Position numbers and translations under genes: made by a program
Notes under the pieces: model-generated
Databases searched by the model: none
Told to the model about the DNA's origin: nothing
Seen by the model: only the letters and a program-made list of their open reading frames with translations
Shown: in pieces, positions 13,366-34,332 of the stretch
Layout: each line of letters opens with the position of its first letter
How positions within the stretch are numbered: the first letter of the stretch is position 1
Assembly: GCF_901538355.1 (NCBI RefSeq)
Contig: NZ_LR593887.1
Coordinates: 4,316,920-4,380,919 of the forward strand
Source: Tuwongella immobilis
GTDB lineage: Bacteria; Planctomycetota; Planctomycetia; Gemmatales; Gemmataceae
Length of the DNA: 64,000 nucleotides
Direction: 5' to 3'

Positions 13366-14580
13366 ATGCCCGACATGCCCGAATCGCCAAAATTGCTGCT
13401 GCCCCCGCAATCGCTGATCTCCGGAGTGGTCAAGGATGCGGTGGTGAGTCTCGACATCGGCAAGATGTCCGCCCAAGCGGTCATCTCCAGCCGGGCCGTC
13501 GATCGGGAATTCGAGATCGTCGAGCCGGAAGCCTTCAGCTTGATCAATTATCGAAAAAATCCGGTGGTGTTTTTCAACCACCAGCAACTCCCGTTTCCGG
13601 TCGGCACCAGCGAATCGCCCGAGAAATCGCTCTCGGTGATGGTGGAGGCCGATCGCGTGTTGGCCACCTGCTATTTCTCGCAGGTGCTCCCCGAGGCGGA
13701 ACTCATCTATCGACTGGTCGAGGAAAAGACGATTCGGGCCACCTCGATCGGCTTTATGTCGCTGGAATCGGTGCGTCTCTCGGATGAAGAGTCGCAGAAA
13801 CTCGGGGCGAAATGGCCCATCTATGTCCACAAAAAGATTGATCTCACCGAATGGTCATGGGTGGGCGTTGGCTGCAATCAGGAGGCGATTTCCCGACATC
13901 TCGCCAATGGCCGAATCGGATCGAAGCAACTCACTCCCGCGCTGATTAAGACGCTGGAACCGTATCGCCTGGAGTCGCCGGCAATGGTGGTGGTCCCTGC
14001 CGATGTTGGCAAGTTCCCCAGGCGGAAATCACAATCCATTCAATCGCAATCCGTCTCCAATCCACCGCAACCCGCGAGCGACATCGCCATGCCCCAAAAA
14101 CCCAAGACTCCAACGACGACCAAAAGCGCGGATGCGGTGCCGCCCGGCGCAACCGCGATGCAAACGCTTTATGCGCTGACCCGGTCTTGTCTCGCCAAGG
14201 TGGATGAACTCATGCCGCTGAATGAACGGCAAGAGATCATCGAGGAGTTGCGATCGTTCCGAAAGCTGAACCGCGAGTACGCCAACGGGCTGATTGAGCG
14301 ATCGGCGAACCTGTACCCGGACATCGAATTCGAGATGGAACTCATCCCGGATGATGATGACAAGGACGACGATAGCGACTCCGACGATGACGATGCGGAC
14401 AAATCGGACGACGCCGACGATGGCGACAAGAGCGGCGATTCGGATGACGATGCCGACGACAAGAGCGATGACTCGGACGACGATGCGAAGTCCGACGATT
14501 CCGACGATGACGAAAAGGCAATCCAATTGCTTGATGCCATCACTGCCAAAATTCTCGGCTCGGCGGCAAAGCTGAGCTAA
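13366..14580 (+). CDS. Prohead protease with acidic scaffold-like tail
   Basis: 404 residues. The N-terminal 180 residues fit the HK97 prohead protease family: SSRAVDREFEIVEPEAFSLINYRKNPVVFFNHQQLP.PVG, then IRATSIGFMSLES and EWSWVGVGCNQEA. Residues 230-310 are a helical scaffold-like linker. Residues 335-385 are a long D/S/K tract (DDDDKDDDSDSDDDD type). Protease and scaffold functions are probably fused, so a separate scaffold gene is not needed. Confidence 0.8.
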   Translation: MPDMPESPKLLLPPQSLISGVVKDAVVSLDIGKMSAQAVISSRAVDREFEIVEPEAFSLINYRKNPVVFFNHQQLPFPVGTSESPEKSLSVMVEADRVLATCYFSQVLPEAELIYRLVEEKTIRATSIGFMSLESVRLSDEESQKLGAKWPIYVHKKIDLTEWSWVGVGCNQEAISRHLANGRIGSKQLTPALIKTLEPYRLESPAMVVVPADVGKFPRRKSQSIQSQSVSNPPQPASDIAMPQKPKTPTTTKSADAVPPGATAMQTLYALTRSCLAKVDELMPLNERQEIIEELRSFRKLNREYANGLIERSANLYPDIEFEMELIPDDDDKDDDSDSDDDDADKSDDADDGDKSGDSDDDADDKSDDSDDDAKSDDSDDDEKAIQLLDAITAKILGSAAKLS

Positions 14581-14613
14581 CCAGCGGTTTTTCCCTCAAA
14601 GACTGGAGACGAC

Positions 14614-16023
14614 ATGCCAAAGCCGAAGAAGAAATCCAGCGGGAAAAAGCCGCTGCTCGACGCGCTCAACCGGCTCAACGATGCGGTGACCCAAGCCACC
14701 GCCAACACCGCCGCAGGTGAACCGGCCCCGACTGCACCGGCAAATCCTGCCGCCGCGAAATCGACGCCGCAATACGCTCCGGGGCAGAATCCCGGCCAAT
14801 TGTTCGGCATCGTCAAGGGTGCGCTGCCGAAGGATTCTGCCCCGTATTCCTACGCGAACATCTATCGTGCGATCGCCGAAAAGGACTGGTCGCACGCCAA
14901 GGGTGAGCGACTGGTGCATGAGGACCTGGTTGCGGCGGGCTTCGCGCTGCCGCAAAACGGCGGCATCCTGGTTCCGCTCGATCCGTATGCGATCGAGCAG
15001 ACGAGCCCCGGCCTGAAGGGGTTGGTTGCCAAGATGGCACTCGGAGCGGCTGCATACGAGGCCGCCGCCAAGAAGGGGGCGAAAGCCCTGTCTGCGTTCG
15101 GCGATGACACGACCGGCGGCGCGTTGGTCATGCCGCAGATGGCCAACAGCATCATCGAGCTGATGCGTCCGCAGGTGGTGGTGGAGCGAGCGGGTGCCCA
15201 GACGATCACGCTGCCGCCCAGCGGCCAACTGGTCATGGCCCGCCAAACCACCGATCCGTCATTCACTTGGATCGGCGGCGAGAACAAGACCATCGCGGAT
15301 TCCGAGCCGAACCTCGGCAATCTGATCCTGTCCGCCAAGCGGGCCGCCGGCCTGGTGGTGATGAGCAACGACTCGCTGCGATACACCAACCCGAGCATCG
15401 AGGTGATTGTTCGCAACTCGCTCGCGGCACGGGGTGCAATCTTCGAGGACAAGGCGTTTCTCGAAGGGGCCGGTTCATCCTTCGAGCCGCGCGGCATCAT
15501 CAATCACACCGGAATCACGCCGCACACCGCCAACACGGTCGGCGCAAACGGGAACACGTTCTCGTTTGAGGATCCGGCGGTGATGATCTCGAAAGTGTTC
15601 GCGGCCAACGATCCCACTGGCCCGACTGCGTTCATTATGCGACCCGAATTGTTCGCCGCGCTGAGCAATCGCCGGGCCGACTCGGTGACCGCCGGCGATG
15701 GCAAGGGTGCATCGCTGTTCTGGTTGACGATGGGCGATCTCGCCAAGGGCTTGCCCGATCGGCTCCGCAACGTCCCGGTGCTGCAAAGCACGCAGATCAG
15801 CAATACCCGCGTGAAGGGGACAGGCACCACCCTGACGTATACCCTGCTCGGGAATTTCCGGCACGCGCTGATTGCTCGGTATGGGGTCATGGAAATGGCC
15901 ATGGACCAATCCGGCAATTACTTCGCCAATGATCAAACCGCGATCCGCTGCATCATGCGGGTCGATTTTGCCCTGACCCAAGAAAAACCGTTCGTATTTT
16001 GCGATCAACTGCTGATCGGATAA
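14614..16023 (+). CDS. Major capsid protein (HK97 fold)
   Basis: 469 residues, following the protease as expected. An A/P-rich N-terminal segment of about 150 residues precedes the phage capsid domain (GGALVMPQMANSIIELMRPQVVVERAGAQ, FTWIGGENKTI.DSEPNLG, LVVMSNDSLRYTNPSIEVIVRNSLA, EDKAFLEGAGSSFEPRGIIN). The N-terminal part would act as the delta scaffold domain cleaved by the protease. Confidence 0.93.
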   Translation: MPKPKKKSSGKKPLLDALNRLNDAVTQATANTAAGEPAPTAPANPAAAKSTPQYAPGQNPGQLFGIVKGALPKDSAPYSYANIYRAIAEKDWSHAKGERLVHEDLVAAGFALPQNGGILVPLDPYAIEQTSPGLKGLVAKMALGAAAYEAAAKKGAKALSAFGDDTTGGALVMPQMANSIIELMRPQVVVERAGAQTITLPPSGQLVMARQTTDPSFTWIGGENKTIADSEPNLGNLILSAKRAAGLVVMSNDSLRYTNPSIEVIVRNSLAARGAIFEDKAFLEGAGSSFEPRGIINHTGITPHTANTVGANGNTFSFEDPAVMISKVFAANDPTGPTAFIMRPELFAALSNRRADSVTAGDGKGASLFWLTMGDLAKGLPDRLRNVPVLQSTQISNTRVKGTGTTLTYTLLGNFRHALIARYGVMEMAMDQSGNYFANDQTAIRCIMRVDFALTQEKPFVFCDQLLIG

Positions 16024-16080
16024 GCCGCATCAACCGTTCCGGGGACTGCCCGAGAGTCCCTGGAACCCACGGGGGACCCC

Positions 16081-16482
16081 ATGAATTTCCAACAGGATCT
16101 GAAGAACGGTTCGCTGATCGGCATGGCCATGTCGCTGGTTGCCCGCACGACGAACGCGGCCGGATCGTCGGTCGATCTGCAAGGTGGTGAGTTGCAGCAT
16201 TCGGCGGTGTTGGTGGCCGGTGCGGTCACCGATGGTACGCACACCGTCAAACTGCAAGAGTCCACCGATGGGACCAACAACTGGGCCGACATCGAGGGAG
16301 CCAGCTTCAGCGGCTTCACCAGCGGTGCCGCTCAGCGAGTCGTGCAAACCATCAATTTCAAGCGTGGAACGCGATTCGTCCGTGCGACGGCCACGGTCGC
16401 AAGTGCCACCAGCGGCGGCGTCTACGGCGTTCTGCTGATCGCCCAGAAGAAAACCACCGGCGGCGATCCGCAACTGACGTAA
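16081..16482 (+). CDS. Probable capsid-associated or decoration protein
   Basis: 133 residues, small, glycine/serine/threonine-rich and all-beta in appearance (SVDLQGGELQHSAVLVAGAVTDGTHTVKLQESTDGTNNWADI). Position directly after the capsid gene fits a decoration protein, but I do not recognise the family. Confidence 0.5.
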   Translation: MNFQQDLKNGSLIGMAMSLVARTTNAAGSSVDLQGGELQHSAVLVAGAVTDGTHTVKLQESTDGTNNWADIEGASFSGFTSGAAQRVVQTINFKRGTRFVRATATVASATSGGVYGVLLIAQKKTTGGDPQLT

Positions 16483-16595
16483 GCCGCAACCGAAATGGGG
16501 GAACGACAGCTCCCAGAAGCCGACTCCGAACAAGTAGGCAAGCCAGCGCGGGAGCGTCTGGCACGGTCGTGACAGCCGGAGAGACGGCGACATCT

Positions 16596-16676
16596 GCCCC
16601 TGTGGCGAAAAGCAAACGCGACCATCCCAAAAATGGTTGTCCATAGGACATGTCGGTTCGAGACCGGCCAGGGGCA
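16596..16676 (+). tRNA. tRNA-Leu(CAA)-like element with aberrant loops
   Basis: Acceptor GCCCCTG pairs perfectly with CAGGGGC (7 bp) and is followed by discriminator A. The anticodon arm ACCAT/ATGGT (5 bp) encloses a 7-base loop with CAA at the anticodon position. A 5-bp variable arm TGTCC/GGACA gives the class II shape expected for Leu. The T arm GTCGG/CCGGC has loop TTCGAGA. Oddities: position 33 is C rather than U, and the D arm is only 3 bp (GCG/CGC) with a loop lacking GG. It is either a degenerate or divergent phage tRNA. It ends just before the 72-residue gene at 16702. Confidence 0.5.
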
Positions 16677-16701
16677 CAAAATTCACGAAAAGGAACACGG
16701 A

Positions 16702-16920
16702 ATGAGCGAAGTGCACGAACCGAAACCCCTCGAAGTTTTGCCGAATAAGGGCAACCTCAAGGTTGGCACGTATCCCGGATTACTCTCGGGAAGCACCATC
16801 AAATCCATGTATGAGGGATTTGAGTACATCCTGCAATTGGAGAAAATCGCCGTCAAAGGCATCAATATCCTCTGCCGGATTGAAGTCACCCAAGAAGAAA
16901 TCGCAGTCTATTTGTCGTAA
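16702..16920 (+). CDS. Small hypothetical phage protein among tRNA-like elements
   Basis: 72 residues from ATG 16702 (MSEVHEPKPLEVLPNKGNLKVGTYPG). No recognised motif; the C-terminal half (YILQLEKIAVKGINILCRIEVTQEEIAVYLS) alternates in a beta pattern. It lies between tRNA-like elements and separates head from connector genes. Confidence 0.45.
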   Translation: MSEVHEPKPLEVLPNKGNLKVGTYPGLLSGSTIKSMYEGFEYILQLEKIAVKGINILCRIEVTQEEIAVYLS

Positions 16921-16924
16921 CTCG

Positions 16925-17013
16925 CCACACGCGGACGGGCAGGCACCGGTGCAAGTCGCAAACAATGCCAACGGCGCGACCCAAGTGCATCCCGTTCGAT
17001 TAGGGGCGTGTGA
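16925..17013 (+). tRNA. Possible degenerate tRNA-like element
   Basis: CACACG and CGTGTG can form a 6-bp acceptor-like stem, with one extra mismatch at the end. A T-arm-like TCCCG-TTCGATT-AGGGG has one G/A mismatch. GTCGC/GCGAC forms a 5-bp stem around a 16-base loop, too large for an anticodon loop. The parts are in tRNA order but the cloverleaf is incomplete. It could be a decayed tRNA or a coincidence. Confidence 0.25.
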
Positions 17014-17019
17014 CATGGC

Positions 17020-17158
17020 GGATGTTTAGCTCAGTCTGGTAGAGCGGCGGGCATCATTTGCCTGCGTCTTTGCGGCCTACTCTGTGACGACCTTGTAGGT
17101 GCGGCAATAACGCGATGCGACGGCTTCGCGTGCGAAGGTTCAAATCCTTCAACATCCA
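17020..17158 (+). tRNA. tRNA-like element, anticodon CAU, with about 68-base insertion before the T arm
   Basis: Acceptor GGATGTT pairs with AACATCC (7 bp), discriminator A. The D arm GCTC-AGTCTGGTA-GAGC is canonical. The anticodon arm GCGGGC/GCCTGC (one G-U) has a 7-base loop ATCATTT, giving CAU with a proper U33 but an unusual U37. The T arm GAAGG-TTCAAAT-CCTTC is perfect. Between anticodon and T arms lie about 68 bases (17066-17133) with their own hairpins (CCTAC/GTAGG, ACGCGA/TCGCGT). That is far longer than any normal variable arm, so it is an insertion or a specialised tRNA-like RNA. Confidence 0.5.
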
Positions 17159-17160
17159 AT

Positions 17161-17249
17161 CCACACGACGCAAACGGCTTGCCGACGCGACACCTAGAAC
17201 CGGATCGCGGCGTAATCAGAGATACCGAGTTCGACTCTCGGCGGGTGGA
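17161..17249 (+). tRNA. Possible degenerate tRNA-like element following the CAU element
   Basis: CCACACG can pair with CGGGTGG with one A/G mismatch. The T arm CCGAG-TTCGACT-CTCGG is perfect, and GCAA/TTGC gives a D-arm-like stem with a 5-base loop. The central stem CGCGA/TCGCG encloses a 14-base loop instead of 7. It begins two bases after the previous element, as in a tRNA array. Likely decayed or atypical. Confidence 0.3.
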
Positions 17250-17293
17250 ATCCGCAATTTCGCGGTGGGAGAAACGACCATGGAGATTGCCGC

Positions 17294-18124
17294 GTGAAAC
17301 GATCGCTGATGATTGCCCGATTTCCGGGTGGAGATGTCGAGCATCCCGATTGCGTCGATTGGCTGTTGCAGGCGTATGCCTGGGCCAAAGATGAACCGAC
17401 GATTTCGGAAATCGGGCTGTGGCGGATGAATGACACGCCGGTGAGCATGAGCCGAAACGCGGCCATCGCCACCGCCCAGCACAAGCATTTTGACTATGTG
17501 CTGATGGTCGATTCCGACATGGCCCCGGATTGCGAACCGGGTGGCAAACCGTTCTTGCCCACCGCGTGGCAATTCGCGTTAGCGCACGATGGCCCCTGTT
17601 TGGTCGGTGCCCCGTATTGTTCCGGGCCACCGATCGAGAAAGCGTTGGCCTATCGCTGGAACGCAGAGCCCAACGGCACGCCGCGCCTGGAGGAATACTC
17701 CCGCGAGGAAGCGGCCCAGCGAACCGGCATCGAGCGAGTCGCCGCGCTAGCCACCGGACTCATGCTCATCGATATGCGGGCGATCGCCAAACTGACGCCG
17801 CCTTACTTCCACTACGAGTTCACCGACTCGCGCCAGGTGCGAAAAGCCAGCACCGAGGACATCGTTTTCACGCGGGATTTGTCAATTGCTGGCGTGCCCT
17901 TGTTCATCAATTGGGAATCTTGGGCAGGCCATTGGAAGGCGAAATTGGTCCGCAAACCGGAGGTGCTGCATGTCTCGGAAGCGCAAAGCCGATTGGCGAC
18001 GCTCCTGCGGACGCGGGAAGCCTCCAACGCACCGGAAGCGATTCCACCAGTCGCGCCAGTGGTGGCAGCGGATCCACCGGAGTCCACCGAACCGCAACTG
18101 AGTCTCCTGGACAGCGGAGATTGA
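17294..18124 (+). CDS. GT-A fold glycosyltransferase-like phage protein
   Basis: 276 residues from GTG 17294. MSRNAAIATAQHKHFDYVLMVDSDMAPD places a DSD (DxD-type) metal site near residue 75, followed by FLPTAWQFALAHDGPCLVGAPYCSGPP. This is a nucleotide-sugar-transferase core. Residues 240-276 are low-complexity (APVVAADPPESTEPQ). It could glycosylate virion or cell-surface components. It is one of three GT-like genes in the prophage. Confidence 0.65.
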   Translation: MKRSLMIARFPGGDVEHPDCVDWLLQAYAWAKDEPTISEIGLWRMNDTPVSMSRNAAIATAQHKHFDYVLMVDSDMAPDCEPGGKPFLPTAWQFALAHDGPCLVGAPYCSGPPIEKALAYRWNAEPNGTPRLEEYSREEAAQRTGIERVAALATGLMLIDMRAIAKLTPPYFHYEFTDSRQVRKASTEDIVFTRDLSIAGVPLFINWESWAGHWKAKLVRKPEVLHVSEAQSRLATLLRTREASNAPEAIPPVAPVVAADPPESTEPQLSLLDSGD

Positions 18125-18127
18125 CGA

Positions 18128-18838
18128 ATGGGGCTGATCTCGCTTGCGGAAGTGAAAACGCGACTCGGTGGCGGCGACACACTGGATGCCGAGGAGGACA
18201 AGCTCCTGGCATTGATTGAAGCCGCCAGCGCAGCTGTAGAGACGTTTTGCCACCGCAAATTCGAGTCAGCCAGCTACACCGAATACCTCGACGGCAATGG
18301 CCGCTCGGATTTGGTGCTCCGCAATCGCCCGGTGCTGAACATCGCCAGTGTGCGAATTGATCCCACCGGAGCCTATGGCGATGGCCCAAATGCGTTTCCG
18401 GCTGACACCGAATTGACCGGCGGGGTGGATTACGTCCTGCCCCGATCGGACAGCACGCATTCTCGATCGGGGCTGCTCAAGCGCATCGGCGGCAGCTTCG
18501 GCGGGTTTTTCAACTCGCCGTATGGTGGCCGTTCCTTCGGCCTAACGCCGATGCGGAGCGGTGCCACCTGGCCGCTGGGTGTGGGCAATATCCGGGTGGT
18601 GTACACCGCCGGCTATGGCGAAATTCCGGAGGACCTCAAACAAGCCGTTTTCACGCTGCTGGCCTGGATGCGCCGCAGCGGCCCACTGGGTGGCGCAACG
18701 CTGACGACGGAGACGCTGGGCGAATACTCGTACACCGTCGGCCAACTGACCAACGCGGCAACCTCGGCATTGTCCACCGTCGGTGAGATGGGGAGCGTGC
18801 GGCAGTTGCTGGCATCGTACAAGGAGTTCAACCTGTGA
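18128..18838 (+). CDS. Head-tail connector protein (gp6-like)
   Basis: 236 residues. N-terminal SLAEVKTRLG....DAEEDKLLALIEAASAAVETFCHRKFE and C-terminal VVYTAGYGEIPEDLKQAVFTLLAWM are typical of gp6-type adaptor proteins that form a ring below the portal. A glycine-rich insertion (GGSFGGFFNSPYGGRSFG) is a lineage-specific extra. Confidence 0.85.
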   Translation: MGLISLAEVKTRLGGGDTLDAEEDKLLALIEAASAAVETFCHRKFESASYTEYLDGNGRSDLVLRNRPVLNIASVRIDPTGAYGDGPNAFPADTELTGGVDYVLPRSDSTHSRSGLLKRIGGSFGGFFNSPYGGRSFGLTPMRSGATWPLGVGNIRVVYTAGYGEIPEDLKQAVFTLLAWMRRSGPLGGATLTTETLGEYSYTVGQLTNAATSALSTVGEMGSVRQLLASYKEFNL

Positions 18839-31747: not shown

Positions 31748-32449
31748 ATGCGAACTCTTCTTGCCGCTCTGGTGCTGTCCCTTCTTGGCGGACATGTCCG
31801 AGCGGAACCGCTCATCGAACTGCCGAGAGAACTGAAGGGCCAACCCGGTCGGCTGATCCGCCTGTCGGCGAAGACCGCGCCGGAATGCAAGATCGTCCGT
31901 TGGCTGGTGGCCAGCGAGGATGCCGACGTGATCCCGTTGGGCGATGATGGCAAGTCCGCCATCTTTTCGGCCGCGACTTCTGGCACTTACAAAATCGTCG
32001 CATACACGGCCAAGGGTGACATCCCATCGGAACCCGCTGTCTGCTCGATCACCGTGGGCCAGCCGACTCCACCGGCGCCCCCGACTCCACCCAGACCAGT
32101 GCCGCCGACTGATCCGCTGGCCGCCGAGCTACGGGCATTGCTCGCGGCGGACAGTTCGTCCGAGAAGTCGAAACACGTCGAATCCCTTTGCGAACTGTAC
32201 CGGCAGGCCCAACTCACCGCTGACGATCCTGCGGTTGGAACCGCTGGGGCACTGGCCGAGATCCTTAAGCGTTCCAGCGCGGCACTGGTGCCATCAACCG
32301 CACTGATCGGGGTGCGGAAGCGAGTGTCAGAGGTCCTCGGGGAGTCGCTGCCCAGCAACCCTGCTGAGCGATTGACTGCCGAGTCTCGAACTCGGGCAAA
32401 AGCGGCTTTCGCCCGAGTCCAAAAGGCTCTTTGTGAGGTGACAAAGTAA
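31748..32449 (+). CDS. Exported phage protein with signal peptide
   Basis: 233 residues from ATG 31748. MRTLLAALVLSLLGGHVRA is a clear signal peptide, followed by a small beta domain (EPLIELPRELKGQPGRLIRLSAKTAPECKIVRWLV), a PPAPPTPPRPVPPTD linker and a helical C-terminal domain. Its stop overlaps the next gene's start by one base. The export signal and late position suggest an envelope-acting or host-surface product. Confidence 0.6.
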   Translation: MRTLLAALVLSLLGGHVRAEPLIELPRELKGQPGRLIRLSAKTAPECKIVRWLVASEDADVIPLGDDGKSAIFSAATSGTYKIVAYTAKGDIPSEPAVCSITVGQPTPPAPPTPPRPVPPTDPLAAELRALLAADSSSEKSKHVESLCELYRQAQLTADDPAVGTAGALAEILKRSSAALVPSTALIGVRKRVSEVLGESLPSNPAERLTAESRTRAKAAFARVQKALCEVTK

Positions 32450-33510
32450 TGGCCAAATGGTTCAAAATCCTGGCTGCGATCTTGGGAGCGTTGGCGACGG
32501 CATTGGCAGCATTCGTGCTGACGGTGGCTCCCGTCGATCCCGAACCACTCGCTGTGCCAGGTGCATTCGGTTGGGTCGCTGACCCTGATGCCGTCGCCGA
32601 GGTGGCGAAGGCGCAACCAGCGCCCACCATCGCCCAGACTCCGGCGGGTGGCGTTCCCGTCGAGTCGCTCCCAGACCATGCGTACTTGTGGGAACTCGAA
32701 CGCAACGTGACGGGGCAGAATCCCCCGCCGCAGAATCAAAAATCGGTCGGCTCGTGCGTATCCTTCGGGACCGCCCGTGCAATCGAGCGGACATTGGCTG
32801 GACAACGGCAGGGCGCTCCCCCCGTTCGTCTGGTCGAAGAAGTCATCTACGGCGGCAGCCGCGTCGAGATCGGTGGCGGGCGAATCAGTGGCGACGGCAG
32901 CATCGGTGCCTGGGCCGCTGAGTTCGTCAAGCAGTATGGCGTCTTGGAGCGTGGATCGTATCCCGGATACGACTTGCGATCGTATTCCGAACCGCTTTGC
33001 CGTGATTGGGGCCGTCTTGGTGTGCCCGACCCGCTGGAACCCACCGTTCGCAAGTTCCCGGTCAAGTCGATCACCCAAGTGACGACGTGGGATCAGGCCA
33101 AGCAAGCCCTGGCCAGCCGATATGGCATCGCCATCAGCAGCAGCCAGGGGTTCCAGATGCAGCGAGACTCTCGCGGTATCTGCGGGCCATTTGGCCGCTG
33201 GATGCACTGCATGTGCTTGGATGGATACCATCGGGACGCGGACGGAACCGAGTACGGTCACATCGAGAATAGTTGGGGGCCCGACGCCCACCGTGGCCCG
33301 GTCGGTTGGGGCAACCCATCCACGGCAGGCTTCTGGGCCCGCGCTGATGTCATCGACAAGATGCTTCGCCAGGGCGATTCCTGGGCATTCAGCGATGTCC
33401 AGGGGTTCCCAGCTCGCCTCGACTGGCTATTGATCAACCCCAAGGAGCGTGCATATGCACGCTGTTTCCAAGGCTACGGAACCGCATCATCACTCGAATC
33501 GTTGAGGTAA
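32449..33510 (+). CDS. Papain-like cysteine peptidase (C1 family) with N-terminal membrane anchor
   Basis: 353 residues. An N-terminal hydrophobic segment (residues 5-27) may be a signal anchor. The C1 fold is shown by QNQKSVGSCVSF (Gln95 or 97 oxyanion, catalytic Cys103), WMHCMCLDGYH (His253) and HIENSWGP (Asn274). The triad is complete. It lies between a secreted protein and a holin-like gene at the end of the late operon. Most phage lysins are muramidases or amidases, so a papain-fold enzyme here may cut a proteinaceous envelope, reflecting planctomycete wall structure. That role is an inference. Confidence 0.8.
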   Translation: MAKWFKILAAILGALATALAAFVLTVAPVDPEPLAVPGAFGWVADPDAVAEVAKAQPAPTIAQTPAGGVPVESLPDHAYLWELERNVTGQNPPPQNQKSVGSCVSFGTARAIERTLAGQRQGAPPVRLVEEVIYGGSRVEIGGGRISGDGSIGAWAAEFVKQYGVLERGSYPGYDLRSYSEPLCRDWGRLGVPDPLEPTVRKFPVKSITQVTTWDQAKQALASRYGIAISSSQGFQMQRDSRGICGPFGRWMHCMCLDGYHRDADGTEYGHIENSWGPDAHRGPVGWGNPSTAGFWARADVIDKMLRQGDSWAFSDVQGFPARLDWLLINPKERAYARCFQGYGTASSLESLR

Positions 33511-33515
33511 TCGGG

Positions 33516-34256
33516 ATGAACTTTCTCAGTGGCTACAAGACCTACATCGCCGCTCTGGGACTCGCCGGGCTGGCCCTGTACCAACTCAGCCAGGCCCAAT
33601 TCGAGCTGGCGATGCAATCGTTCCTTGCGGCTCTTGCGGCTGCCGGTTTGCGTGACGCGGTGGCGAAATCGACCCCGCCCACGCAGACCACGAACCCGCC
33701 CAGCTCGCCGAGCGACCCCAACAAAGAGACGATGATTCTCCCCATCCATCCCGTGACTAAGCTGGGTGTCGCGGCAATCGCGGTGCTAATCCTCGGTGGT
33801 CAGGCAATGGCCAGTGACCCGGCCACGCGGGCCAAGGTCGCTTTGGCGTTGGCCCAAGCCCAGGCGAGTTGCACAGACGCCGTGACTGAGGCCAAGCCCA
33901 TAACCATGACCATGACCTACGCCGAAGCACGAGCGGAGGCCATCCGTCAGAACGTGCCACTGATTGTCTGGGTAGGCCAACCTGCCCAGCCGATGAACGG
34001 TGCGATGAGTGTGGCGGTGGATCAATTCGATGGGGCGGATGGCAAAGCTGTTGTGATCGGCAAGCCAGATGCCGGCGATCTGATGCGATTCCGCACCCTC
34101 ACCGGTGAGCGAACCGCATCGCAAGTCCGCTCCGAACTGGATTGCCCGGATGGCAAGTGCAATCTCCCCAGCGCAACCGGCGCGGCTGGCAATGCCGCGA
34201 TCGCTGCGTATGAGTATTGCCCGACCTGTCCGGGCGGTGTTCGCCGCGTGCGATGA
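33516..34256 (+). CDS. Holin-like membrane protein with periplasmic domain
   Basis: 246 residues. FLSGYKTYIAALGLAGLALYQLSQAQFELAMQSFLAALAAAGLRDAV is a typical small phage holin-like N-terminus. A second hydrophobic segment (KLGVAAIAVLILGGQAMA) follows a TTNPPSSPSDP linker and looks like an internal signal peptide. The remainder (YAEARAEAIRQNVPLIVWVG) has a thioredoxin-like start, and CPTC near the end could be redox or metal cysteines. It may be two ancestral genes fused: holin and exported thioredoxin-like protein. Confidence 0.6.
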   Translation: MNFLSGYKTYIAALGLAGLALYQLSQAQFELAMQSFLAALAAAGLRDAVAKSTPPTQTTNPPSSPSDPNKETMILPIHPVTKLGVAAIAVLILGGQAMASDPATRAKVALALAQAQASCTDAVTEAKPITMTMTYAEARAEAIRQNVPLIVWVGQPAQPMNGAMSVAVDQFDGADGKAVVIGKPDAGDLMRFRTLTGERTASQVRSELDCPDGKCNLPSATGAAGNAAIAAYEYCPTCPGGVRRVR

Positions 34257-34285
34257 TCAGCGGTTGAATGATGTGAAATCCCAAA

Positions 34286-34332
34286 CTGCCCGCTGTGACT
34301 CTCGACGAATCGCAGCGGGCAGTGGTATTTTT
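34286..34332 (+). terminator. Rho-independent terminator closing the prophage late operon
   Basis: CTGCCCGCTG pairs perfectly with CAGCGGGCAG over 10 bp, followed by TGGTATTTTT. It lies 30 bases after the holin-like stop. Confidence 0.85.

What the first reader, a model, noticed from the sequence alone, without database searches (positions are those of the whole stretch)
16596..17249. Cluster of unusual tRNA-like elements between head and connector genes
Two elements have strong tRNA traits: a class II Leu(CAA)-like one with C33 and a bare D loop, and a CAU one with a canonical D arm and T arm but a 68-base structured insertion before the T arm. Two weaker elements lie beside them. Phages use tRNAs to fix codon bias or evade host tRNA cleavage, but a 139-base tRNA-like RNA is not normal. 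It may be a specialised tRNA mimic or an inserted regulatory RNA.
Basis: partly seen in the sequence, partly recalled or inferred. Interest (0 to 1): 0.6.

Follow-up and report, generated by a model that had tools for sequence, protein, structure and literature searches.

The report
Phage tRNA with two extra hairpins
A virus dormant in a planctomycete bacterium carries a small row of tRNA-shaped RNAs among its head genes, one of them a complete tRNA with two extra hairpins built in; it looks like one local case of a little-noticed habit of phages of putting structured inserts into their tRNA genes.

Summary
Between the head gene 16081-16482 and 17294 lie a Leu(CAA)-like element (C33, no GG in the D loop), a 139-nt CAU tRNA, a weaker element (17161-17249) and a doubtful one (16925-17014). 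Acceptor-plus-T-arm units occur nowhere else in the window; shuffles give 0.1 per 64 kb. The CAU element is a tRNA core, which ARAGORN names tRNA-Met(cat) once the insert is left out, plus a 65-nt insert between variable loop and T stem. The insert folds into two hairpins, both capped by GACG. A second phage contig (L285) has the same architecture, again with two GACG caps; 0 of 2000 shuffles of either insert give two. The Leu element recurs with 82 identical nt in a second prophage of this genome. Codon compensation is not supported: AUA is 1 of 7,676 phage codons. All elements keep the acceptor/T-arm half better than the decoding half, so I favour operon-embedded tRNA mimics over decoders. 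Following the insert led to many phage tRNAs with short structured inserts, including a family with a conserved hairpin + ACAGCAA in cultured phages, annotated 'pseudo', 'undetermined' or not at all.

The parts
16596..16677 (+). Leu(CAA)-like class II tRNA element: C33, D loop without GG, variable hairpin, intact acceptor and T arm
   Evidence: ARAGORN; fold z -3.28; 82 identical nt at L033:19038-19119 in a second prophage of the same genome
16702..16920 (+). 72-codon ORF of unknown function inside the array
   Evidence: sequence; no PHROG or Pfam match
16925..17014 (+). Doubtful tRNA-like element B: acceptor CCACACG/CGTGTGA (6 of 7 pairs), T arm 4 of 5 pairs
   Evidence: sequence; z -0.82 over 16925-17017; acceptor shared with 17161-17249 and L033:18933-19036
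17020..17158 (+). 139-nt tRNA(CAU)-like RNA: acceptor 17020-17026/17151-17157, D arm 17029-17045, anticodon arm 17047-17065 (loop AUCAUUU), variable-loop remnant GUC 17066-17068, T arm 17134-17150, A73 17158
   Evidence: Rfam 46.9 bits; fold z -3.58; ARAGORN tRNA-Met(cat) with the insert left out
17069..17133 (+). 65-nt insert between variable loop and T stem: hairpin H1 17070-17107 and hairpin H2 17110-17131
   Evidence: MFE; same arrangement in L285
17086..17089 (+). GACG cap of H1
17119..17122 (+). GACG cap of H2
17161..17249 (+). tRNA-like element C: acceptor CCACACG/CGGGTGG (6 of 7), T arm 5 of 5, no recognisable anticodon arm
   Evidence: scanner; fold z 0.01
14614..16023 (+). major capsid protein gene, used to find related phages
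   Evidence: PHROG 617 E 3e-38; PF05065
17294..18124 (+). gene of unknown function directly downstream of the array
   Evidence: weak PHROG 1574 match, E 1.6e-4
18128..18838 (+). head-tail connector gene
   Evidence: PHROG 442 E 7e-31

Best explanation
The array is a set of tRNA-shaped RNAs in the late (head) transcript of a planctomycete siphophage. The 139-nt member is a tRNA(CAU) core with a two-hairpin, GACG-capped domain inserted between variable loop and T stem. Shown: the anatomy, its departure from chance, the same two-hairpin domain in a second phage, and the exact recurrence of the Leu element in a second prophage. Inferred: host RNase P and RNase Z cut the units out of the head-operon RNA at the well-kept acceptor/T-arm halves; the insert stays on as an extra domain; and the product works as a tRNA mimic and/or as a cut point between head mRNAs rather than as a decoding tRNA, because the decoding halves are abnormal in every member. 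I cannot name the partner of the GACG loops.
For: Acceptor/T-arm units confined to the array. No sigma-70-like promoter found at 14500-18300, and none of the three terminator-like sites lies in the array on the + strand, so it appears operon-embedded. L285 folds unaided into the same order of arms, scores 65.6 bits with the single-sequence window model against at most 41.5 for any other match, and has two GACG caps; none of 2000 shuffles of either insert has two. Decoding features fail: U37 and a 6-bp anticodon stem in the CAU element, C33 and no GG in Leu, no usable anticodon arm in 17161-17249 (sequence); L285's core gets only an undetermined 2-base anticodon from ARAGORN. AUA is nearly absent from phage genes. 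The Leu element has 82 identical nt in another prophage, whose only other nucleotide similarity to the window over the 40 kb compared is a 2.4-kb stretch at 86%.
Against: The closest relatives by capsid (L198, L199; 53-54%) have no tRNA within the flanks read. Element C folds no better than chance. Elsewhere in phages many inserts interrupt the anticodon arm and would have to be removed for decoding, which argues that inserts may be excised rather than kept. RNase P/Z processing and expression were not tested.
Confidence: 0.47

Rival explanations
1. The 65-nt insert is a removable mini-intron: it is excised at 48/49 and the halves are joined, giving a 74-nt tRNA-Met/Ile2(CAU).
For: Leaving it out gives a core that ARAGORN calls tRNA-Met(cat). 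Many phage tRNAs carry short inserts whose removal restores a full anticodon stem: 39 of 71 score at least 11, against 1.1% of shuffles. The host has RtcB.
Against: No EndA-type endonuclease in the host or in 24 viral records, many of them fragments. The core still has U37, and L285's core has no proper anticodon loop. A variable-region insert need not be removed for folding. The insert lacks the ACAGCAA motif of family X.
Confidence: 0.24
2. The elements are decaying phage tRNA genes, and the insert is debris.
For: Non-canonical C33, bare D loop, acceptor mismatches; C and B fold no better than shuffles; array absent from the nearest capsid relatives.
Against: Leu identical over 82 nt in two prophages. 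CAU acceptor, D and T arms intact with fold z -3.58. The same GACG-capped two-hairpin insert in another phage.
Confidence: 0.17
3. Ordinary phage tRNAs that correct codon bias or replace cleaved host tRNAs.
For: Related phages do carry CAU tRNAs beside the capsid gene: 8 of 70 other viral loci, all CAU. T4-like phages commonly carry a CAU tRNA of the lysidine type (PMC1524935, passages read).
Against: AUA 1 of 7,676, UUG not enriched; abnormal anticodon loops; default ARAGORN does not report the CAU element.
Confidence: 0.07
4. A Y-RNA-like (YrlA) regulatory RNA.
For: Weak YrlA match at 16958-17076, 21 bits.
Against: Gathering score is 69; an ordinary tRNA region in L298 gives 25 bits; no TROVE/Ro60 protein in the host.
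Confidence: 0.02

Closest known systems
Canonical tRNA (Rfam RF00005)
   Same: 7-bp acceptor, D arm with GG, T arm, CAU with U33 in the 17020-17158 element
   Different: 65-nt two-hairpin insert before the T stem, U37, 6-bp anticodon stem; the Leu element has C33 and no GG
L285 element of viral contig IMGVR_UViG_3300031857_001697
   Same: same order of arms, insert before the T stem, two GACG-capped hairpins
   Different: different acceptor, stem sequences and anticodon region; no CAU
Family X inserts in phage tRNAs (defined here; e.g. Aeromonas phage Ahp1_CNU-2021, Synechococcus phages B23 and BUCT-ZZ01)
   Same: phage tRNA with a short structured insert, missed or called pseudo/undetermined
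   Different: insert mostly at anticodon-stem positions 29/30, one hairpin plus ACAGCAA
Cronobacter phage JK004 / L325 / L344 CAU element
   Same: tRNA(CAU)-like with extra hairpins between D arm and T arm
   Different: unrelated insert sequence; CAU loop in the middle hairpin
Group I introns and archaeal tRNA introns (general knowledge; passages of PMC3984707 seen)
   Same: intervening sequence in a tRNA gene
   Different: no Rfam group I match and far shorter; no EndA in the host

Membership tests
Canonical tRNA | Rfam RF00005 gathering score | tested here: met
   CAU element 46.9 against 29 bits; Leu, B and C do not reach it
Canonical tRNA | 7-bp acceptor and 5-bp T stem with TTCRA loop | tested here: met
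   Leu and CAU; C has one acceptor mismatch; B fails one pair in each stem
Canonical tRNA | anticodon loop with U33 and purine 37 | tested here: not met
   CAU element U33 yes, U37; Leu C33 (sequence)
Canonical tRNA | variable region of known class I or II length | tested here: not met
   68 nt between anticodon stem and T stem (sequence)
Canonical tRNA | aminoacylation and decoding | not testable with these tools
   needs RNA work
Removable intron | core folds as tRNA without the insert | tested here: met
   ARAGORN tRNA-Met(cat)
Removable intron | spliced RNA exists | not testable with these tools
   no transcript data
Archaeal-type tRNA intron | EndA splicing endonuclease in the host | tested here: not met
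   PF01974 absent from G000
Group I intron | Rfam match and size | tested here: not met
   no match; insert 65 nt
Family X phage tRNA insert | hairpin + ACAGCAA, position 29/30 | tested here: not met
   motif absent from 17069-17133; position 48/49 (sequence)
Y RNA (YrlA) | Rfam gathering score | tested here: not met
   21 against 69 bits
Y RNA (YrlA) | Ro60/TROVE partner | tested here: not met
   0 matches in the host
tmRNA | ARAGORN or Rfam match | tested here: not met
   none in the window
Operon punctuation by RNase P/Z | processed ends at the acceptor stems | not testable with these tools
   needs 5'/3' end mapping

The most novel reading that the evidence does not exclude
Phage tRNA genes host several unrecognised families of very short (about 40-70 nt) structured insertions, dismissed as pseudo- or undetermined tRNAs: a new class of mini-introns, or of retained tRNA add-on domains. 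The window's GACG-capped two-hairpin insert at 48/49 is the planctomycete-phage family, and the hairpin + ACAGCAA insert at 29/30 is a widespread family in cultured phages.
Probability: 0.4. Interest if true: 0.88.

Novelty: new variant of a known kind. Interest (0 to 1): 0.63.

Why it matters
If the insert is kept, phages have built an extended tRNA mimic with a conserved loop code that should have a specific partner. If it is removed, bacteria and their phages have a way to excise ~65-nt or even ~40-nt introns from tRNAs without the archaeal endonuclease, which would be new. Either answer reclassifies 'tRNA-Pseudo' and 'tRNA-Undet' entries in public phage genomes and can be tested with cultured phages.

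Tried and rejected
Codon compensation rejected on codon counts. YrlA/Ro RNA rejected. Dispersed repeat inserted into a tRNA: no other copy of the insert in the genome. Attachment-site remnant: both tRNA halves are present and the array is internal to the prophage, so not favoured. Misread intron with a different anticodon: ARAGORN's intron mode gives Cys(gca) with a 50-nt intron for the window element, but that ignores the well-formed CAU hairpin. Leads that went nowhere: the exact Leu anticodon-arm pattern in viral contigs gave only this prophage as a tRNA among 9 stretches; the 16-base D-arm pattern in genome contigs was too short, and ARAGORN found no tRNA under the pattern in any of its loci; direct similarity of the whole array in phage records gave only short matches; structure model R1 found no planctomycete relative. 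The genus name Tuwongella was only my guess from genome size; no call establishes it.

Rows dropped before counts: of the 80 matches examined, 39 failed the acceptor/T-stem test (tandem tRNAs, fragments, chance) and are not counted as insert tRNAs; among the 41 kept, L313, L315 and probably L283 look like tandem composites. The 71 tRNAs are those of the fetched loci with at least 6 Watson-Crick and no mismatched acceptor pairs, T[AG] at 8-9, a D stem without mismatch and 104-150 nt; a few tandem composites may remain. Family X rows were chosen by motif and score, so its consensus is partly by selection.

Full report
CHECK OF THE OBSERVATION. Its left part is a siphophage-like prophage, held in IMG/VR as IMGVR_UViG_2883404505_000003; terminase, portal, capsid and connector genes are recognised by PHROGs and Pfam. 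ARAGORN reports one tRNA in the window, Leu(caa) at 16596-16677. Rfam reports one, at 17020-17158, with 46.9 bits. A scanner for an acceptor stem joined to a perfect T arm finds the Leu element, the CAU element and 17161-17249, and nothing else in 64 kb; 20 shuffled windows gave 0.1 on average. The fourth element (16925-17014) fails that test and is doubtful. Folding z-scores are -3.28 (Leu), -3.58 (CAU), 0.01 (17161-17249) and -0.82 (16925-17017).

ANATOMY OF THE CAU ELEMENT. Acceptor GGATGTT/AACATCC, D arm with loop AGTCTGGTA, a 6-bp anticodon stem with loop AUCAUUU, variable-loop remnant GUC, then 65 nt, then T arm GAAGG-TTCAAAT-CCTTC. With the 65 nt left out, ARAGORN calls the 74-nt core tRNA-Met(cat); with them in, default ARAGORN finds nothing. 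The insert folds into two hairpins, each capped by GACG. The anticodon loop has U33 but also U37, and A32 can pair with U38, so decoding is doubtful.

A RELATIVE. A pattern search of viral contigs for a D arm and T arm set far apart brought in L285, a 20.7-kb contig. Its 140-nt element folds without constraint into the same series of arms, with the insert at the same junction and GACG caps on both hairpins, although the stem sequences differ. A covariance model built from the window sequence alone scores L285 at 65.6 bits; the next best match, in two searches covering 104 sources in all, scores 41.5, and ordinary tRNAs reach about 36. None of 2000 dinucleotide shuffles of either insert gave two GACG loops. 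No further relative was found among 397 class and 392 phylum genomes (at most 8 candidates scored per genome), nor with two more targeted patterns. With two sequences a formal covariation test is not possible.

THE REST OF THE ARRAY. The Leu element occurs a second time in the genome, inside another prophage (integrase beside a tRNA-Sec gene in L033), just upstream of a gene that reads like a small terminase subunit (my reading of the ORF; no family search was run). 82 nt are identical while the flanks differ; the only other nucleotide similarity over the 40 kb compared is 2.4 kb at 86%. Directly before that copy is a 104-nt element with 7/7 acceptor and 5/5 T-stem pairs. Its acceptor CCACACG is also that of the two weaker window elements (the 16 genome-wide matches of that loose pattern hardly exceed the 12 of the control, so the pattern alone proves nothing).

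CONTEXT IN RELATED PHAGES. Of 71 viral loci with a related capsid gene, the window's own copy apart, 8 of 70 carry an ARAGORN tRNA, all eight CAU and all a few hundred bases upstream of the capsid gene; several are near-identical. One planctomycete genome locus shows the same (L168). None of these has the insert, and the closest relatives L198 and L199 have no tRNA in the flanks read.

FUNCTION. Codon supply is unlikely: AUA occurs once in 7,676 codons of 22 phage ORFs, and UUG is not enriched over nearby ORFs (those nearby ORFs were picked by length and may include wrong frames, so only the phage count is firm). The scan found no promoter-like site and no + strand terminator-like site in the array, which suggests co-transcription with the head genes. 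Across the elements the acceptor/T-arm half is well kept and the decoding half is not. From general knowledge, that half is what RNase P, RNase Z, the CCA enzyme and EF-Tu read. I therefore favour tRNA mimics cut out of, and perhaps dividing, the late transcript, with the two-hairpin domain retained. The mini-intron reading is the main rival.

THE WIDER PATTERN. The wider set of fetched loci gives 71 long tRNAs. Leaving the insert out restores the anticodon arm well (score at least 11) in 39 of 71, against 1.1% of shuffles, and at least 13 in 21 of 71, against 0.07%. In one family (21 rows, selected by motif) inserts of 38-57 nt sit mostly at positions 29/30 (14 of 21) and share a hairpin followed by ACAGCAA or ACTGCAA. 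Relatives occur in Synechococcus phage B23 ('tRNA-Undet-???') and BUCT-ZZ01, Aeromonas phage Ahp1_CNU-2021 ('tRNA-Pseudo'), Aeh1 and phiAS5, and probably Vibrio phage 6E35.1a ('tRNA-OTHER'; similarity only). A second group (L325, L344, Cronobacter phage JK004) has a CAU loop in the middle of three hairpins. In 294 genomes of the host's phylum a similar pattern finds only the window element as an insert tRNA; the other nine matches begin as ordinary tRNAs, one of them with masked bases. No EndA was found in the host or in 24 viral records, many of them fragments; RtcB is in the host and in 4 of the 24.

LITERATURE. Eight searches of the held library listed no paper whose title or abstract start describes short inserts in phage tRNAs. 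Passages read: PMC1524935 (Aeh1: three predicted tRNA pseudogenes in its table, no group I introns, CAU tRNAs of lysidine type), PMC4177764, PMC9897764, PMC3984707. Preprints and most subscription journals are not held, so absence in print is not shown.

VERDICT. It is a new variant of a known kind (a phage tRNA with a conserved structured insert), most likely a tRNA mimic; the decay reading is not excluded. The strongest reason for interest is the wider pattern that it opened.

Noticed in passing
L286, L309, L318, L319, L333, L345, L353, L359, L360, L361, L363, L377, L396, L399, L424, L437 and others: Phage tRNA genes with 38-57-nt inserts, mostly at anticodon-stem positions 29/30, sharing a short hairpin and ACAGCAA/ACTGCAA; leaving the insert out restores the anticodon arm. 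Cultured phages carry them as 'pseudo' or unannotated tRNAs.
   Followed up: partly
L325:1077-1203, L344:8173-8299, L425 around 1500-1625 (Cronobacter phage JK004): Conserved tRNA(CAU)-like family with three hairpins between D and T arms and motif AAGG.TCATAACCC...TATCTCAT, unannotated in JK004.
   Followed up: partly
L379:1505-1637, 1642-1778, 1838-1974; L297:155-289 and 1926-2059: Different tRNAs within one phage contig share an insert ending with a motif like GTCATGAGCCTACAAGC (L379) or CATACA(A/C)GCT (L297), as if one insert had spread.
   Followed up: no
L290:7954-8087, L298:1735-1868, L300:10760-10893: Another insert family in tRNA-rich phage arrays (CTTTTTTCCC...AAGGTGACG...GGCTTACTTCGAT).
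   Followed up: no
L035:810-1767 (own genome, about 6.68 Mb): Array of nine ARAGORN tRNAs with odd features on the host chromosome, including a 68-nt Met(cat) form.
   Followed up: no
L036:1144-1255 (own genome, about 5.83 Mb): 112-nt tRNA-like element with a 14-bp hairpin in place of the anticodon arm; fold z -4.52, Rfam 27.7 bits, just below the cut-off.
   Followed up: partly
L033:7901-9246: A second prophage apparently integrated at a tRNA-Sec gene, with an integrase ORF reading towards it.
   Followed up: no
L231:8110-8184, L233:9662-9736, L236:867-939, L252:3874-3946, L261:1294-1367, L168:3178-3252: CAU tRNAs just upstream of the capsid gene in related phages; several have a C.C mismatch at 1-72, reminiscent of initiator tRNA.
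   Followed up: partly
L281:1093-1209: YrlA (bacterial Y RNA) match of 38.6 bits, E 2.9e-5, below gathering, in a viral contig.
   Followed up: no
L242, minus strand, about 1865-1910: Possible acceptor + T-arm minihelix, GACCTAG...CTAGGTC with only about 14 nt before the T arm; may be an attachment site.
   Followed up: no
window 31875-34323: 2.4 kb at 86% identity with the second prophage of the same genome.
   Followed up: no
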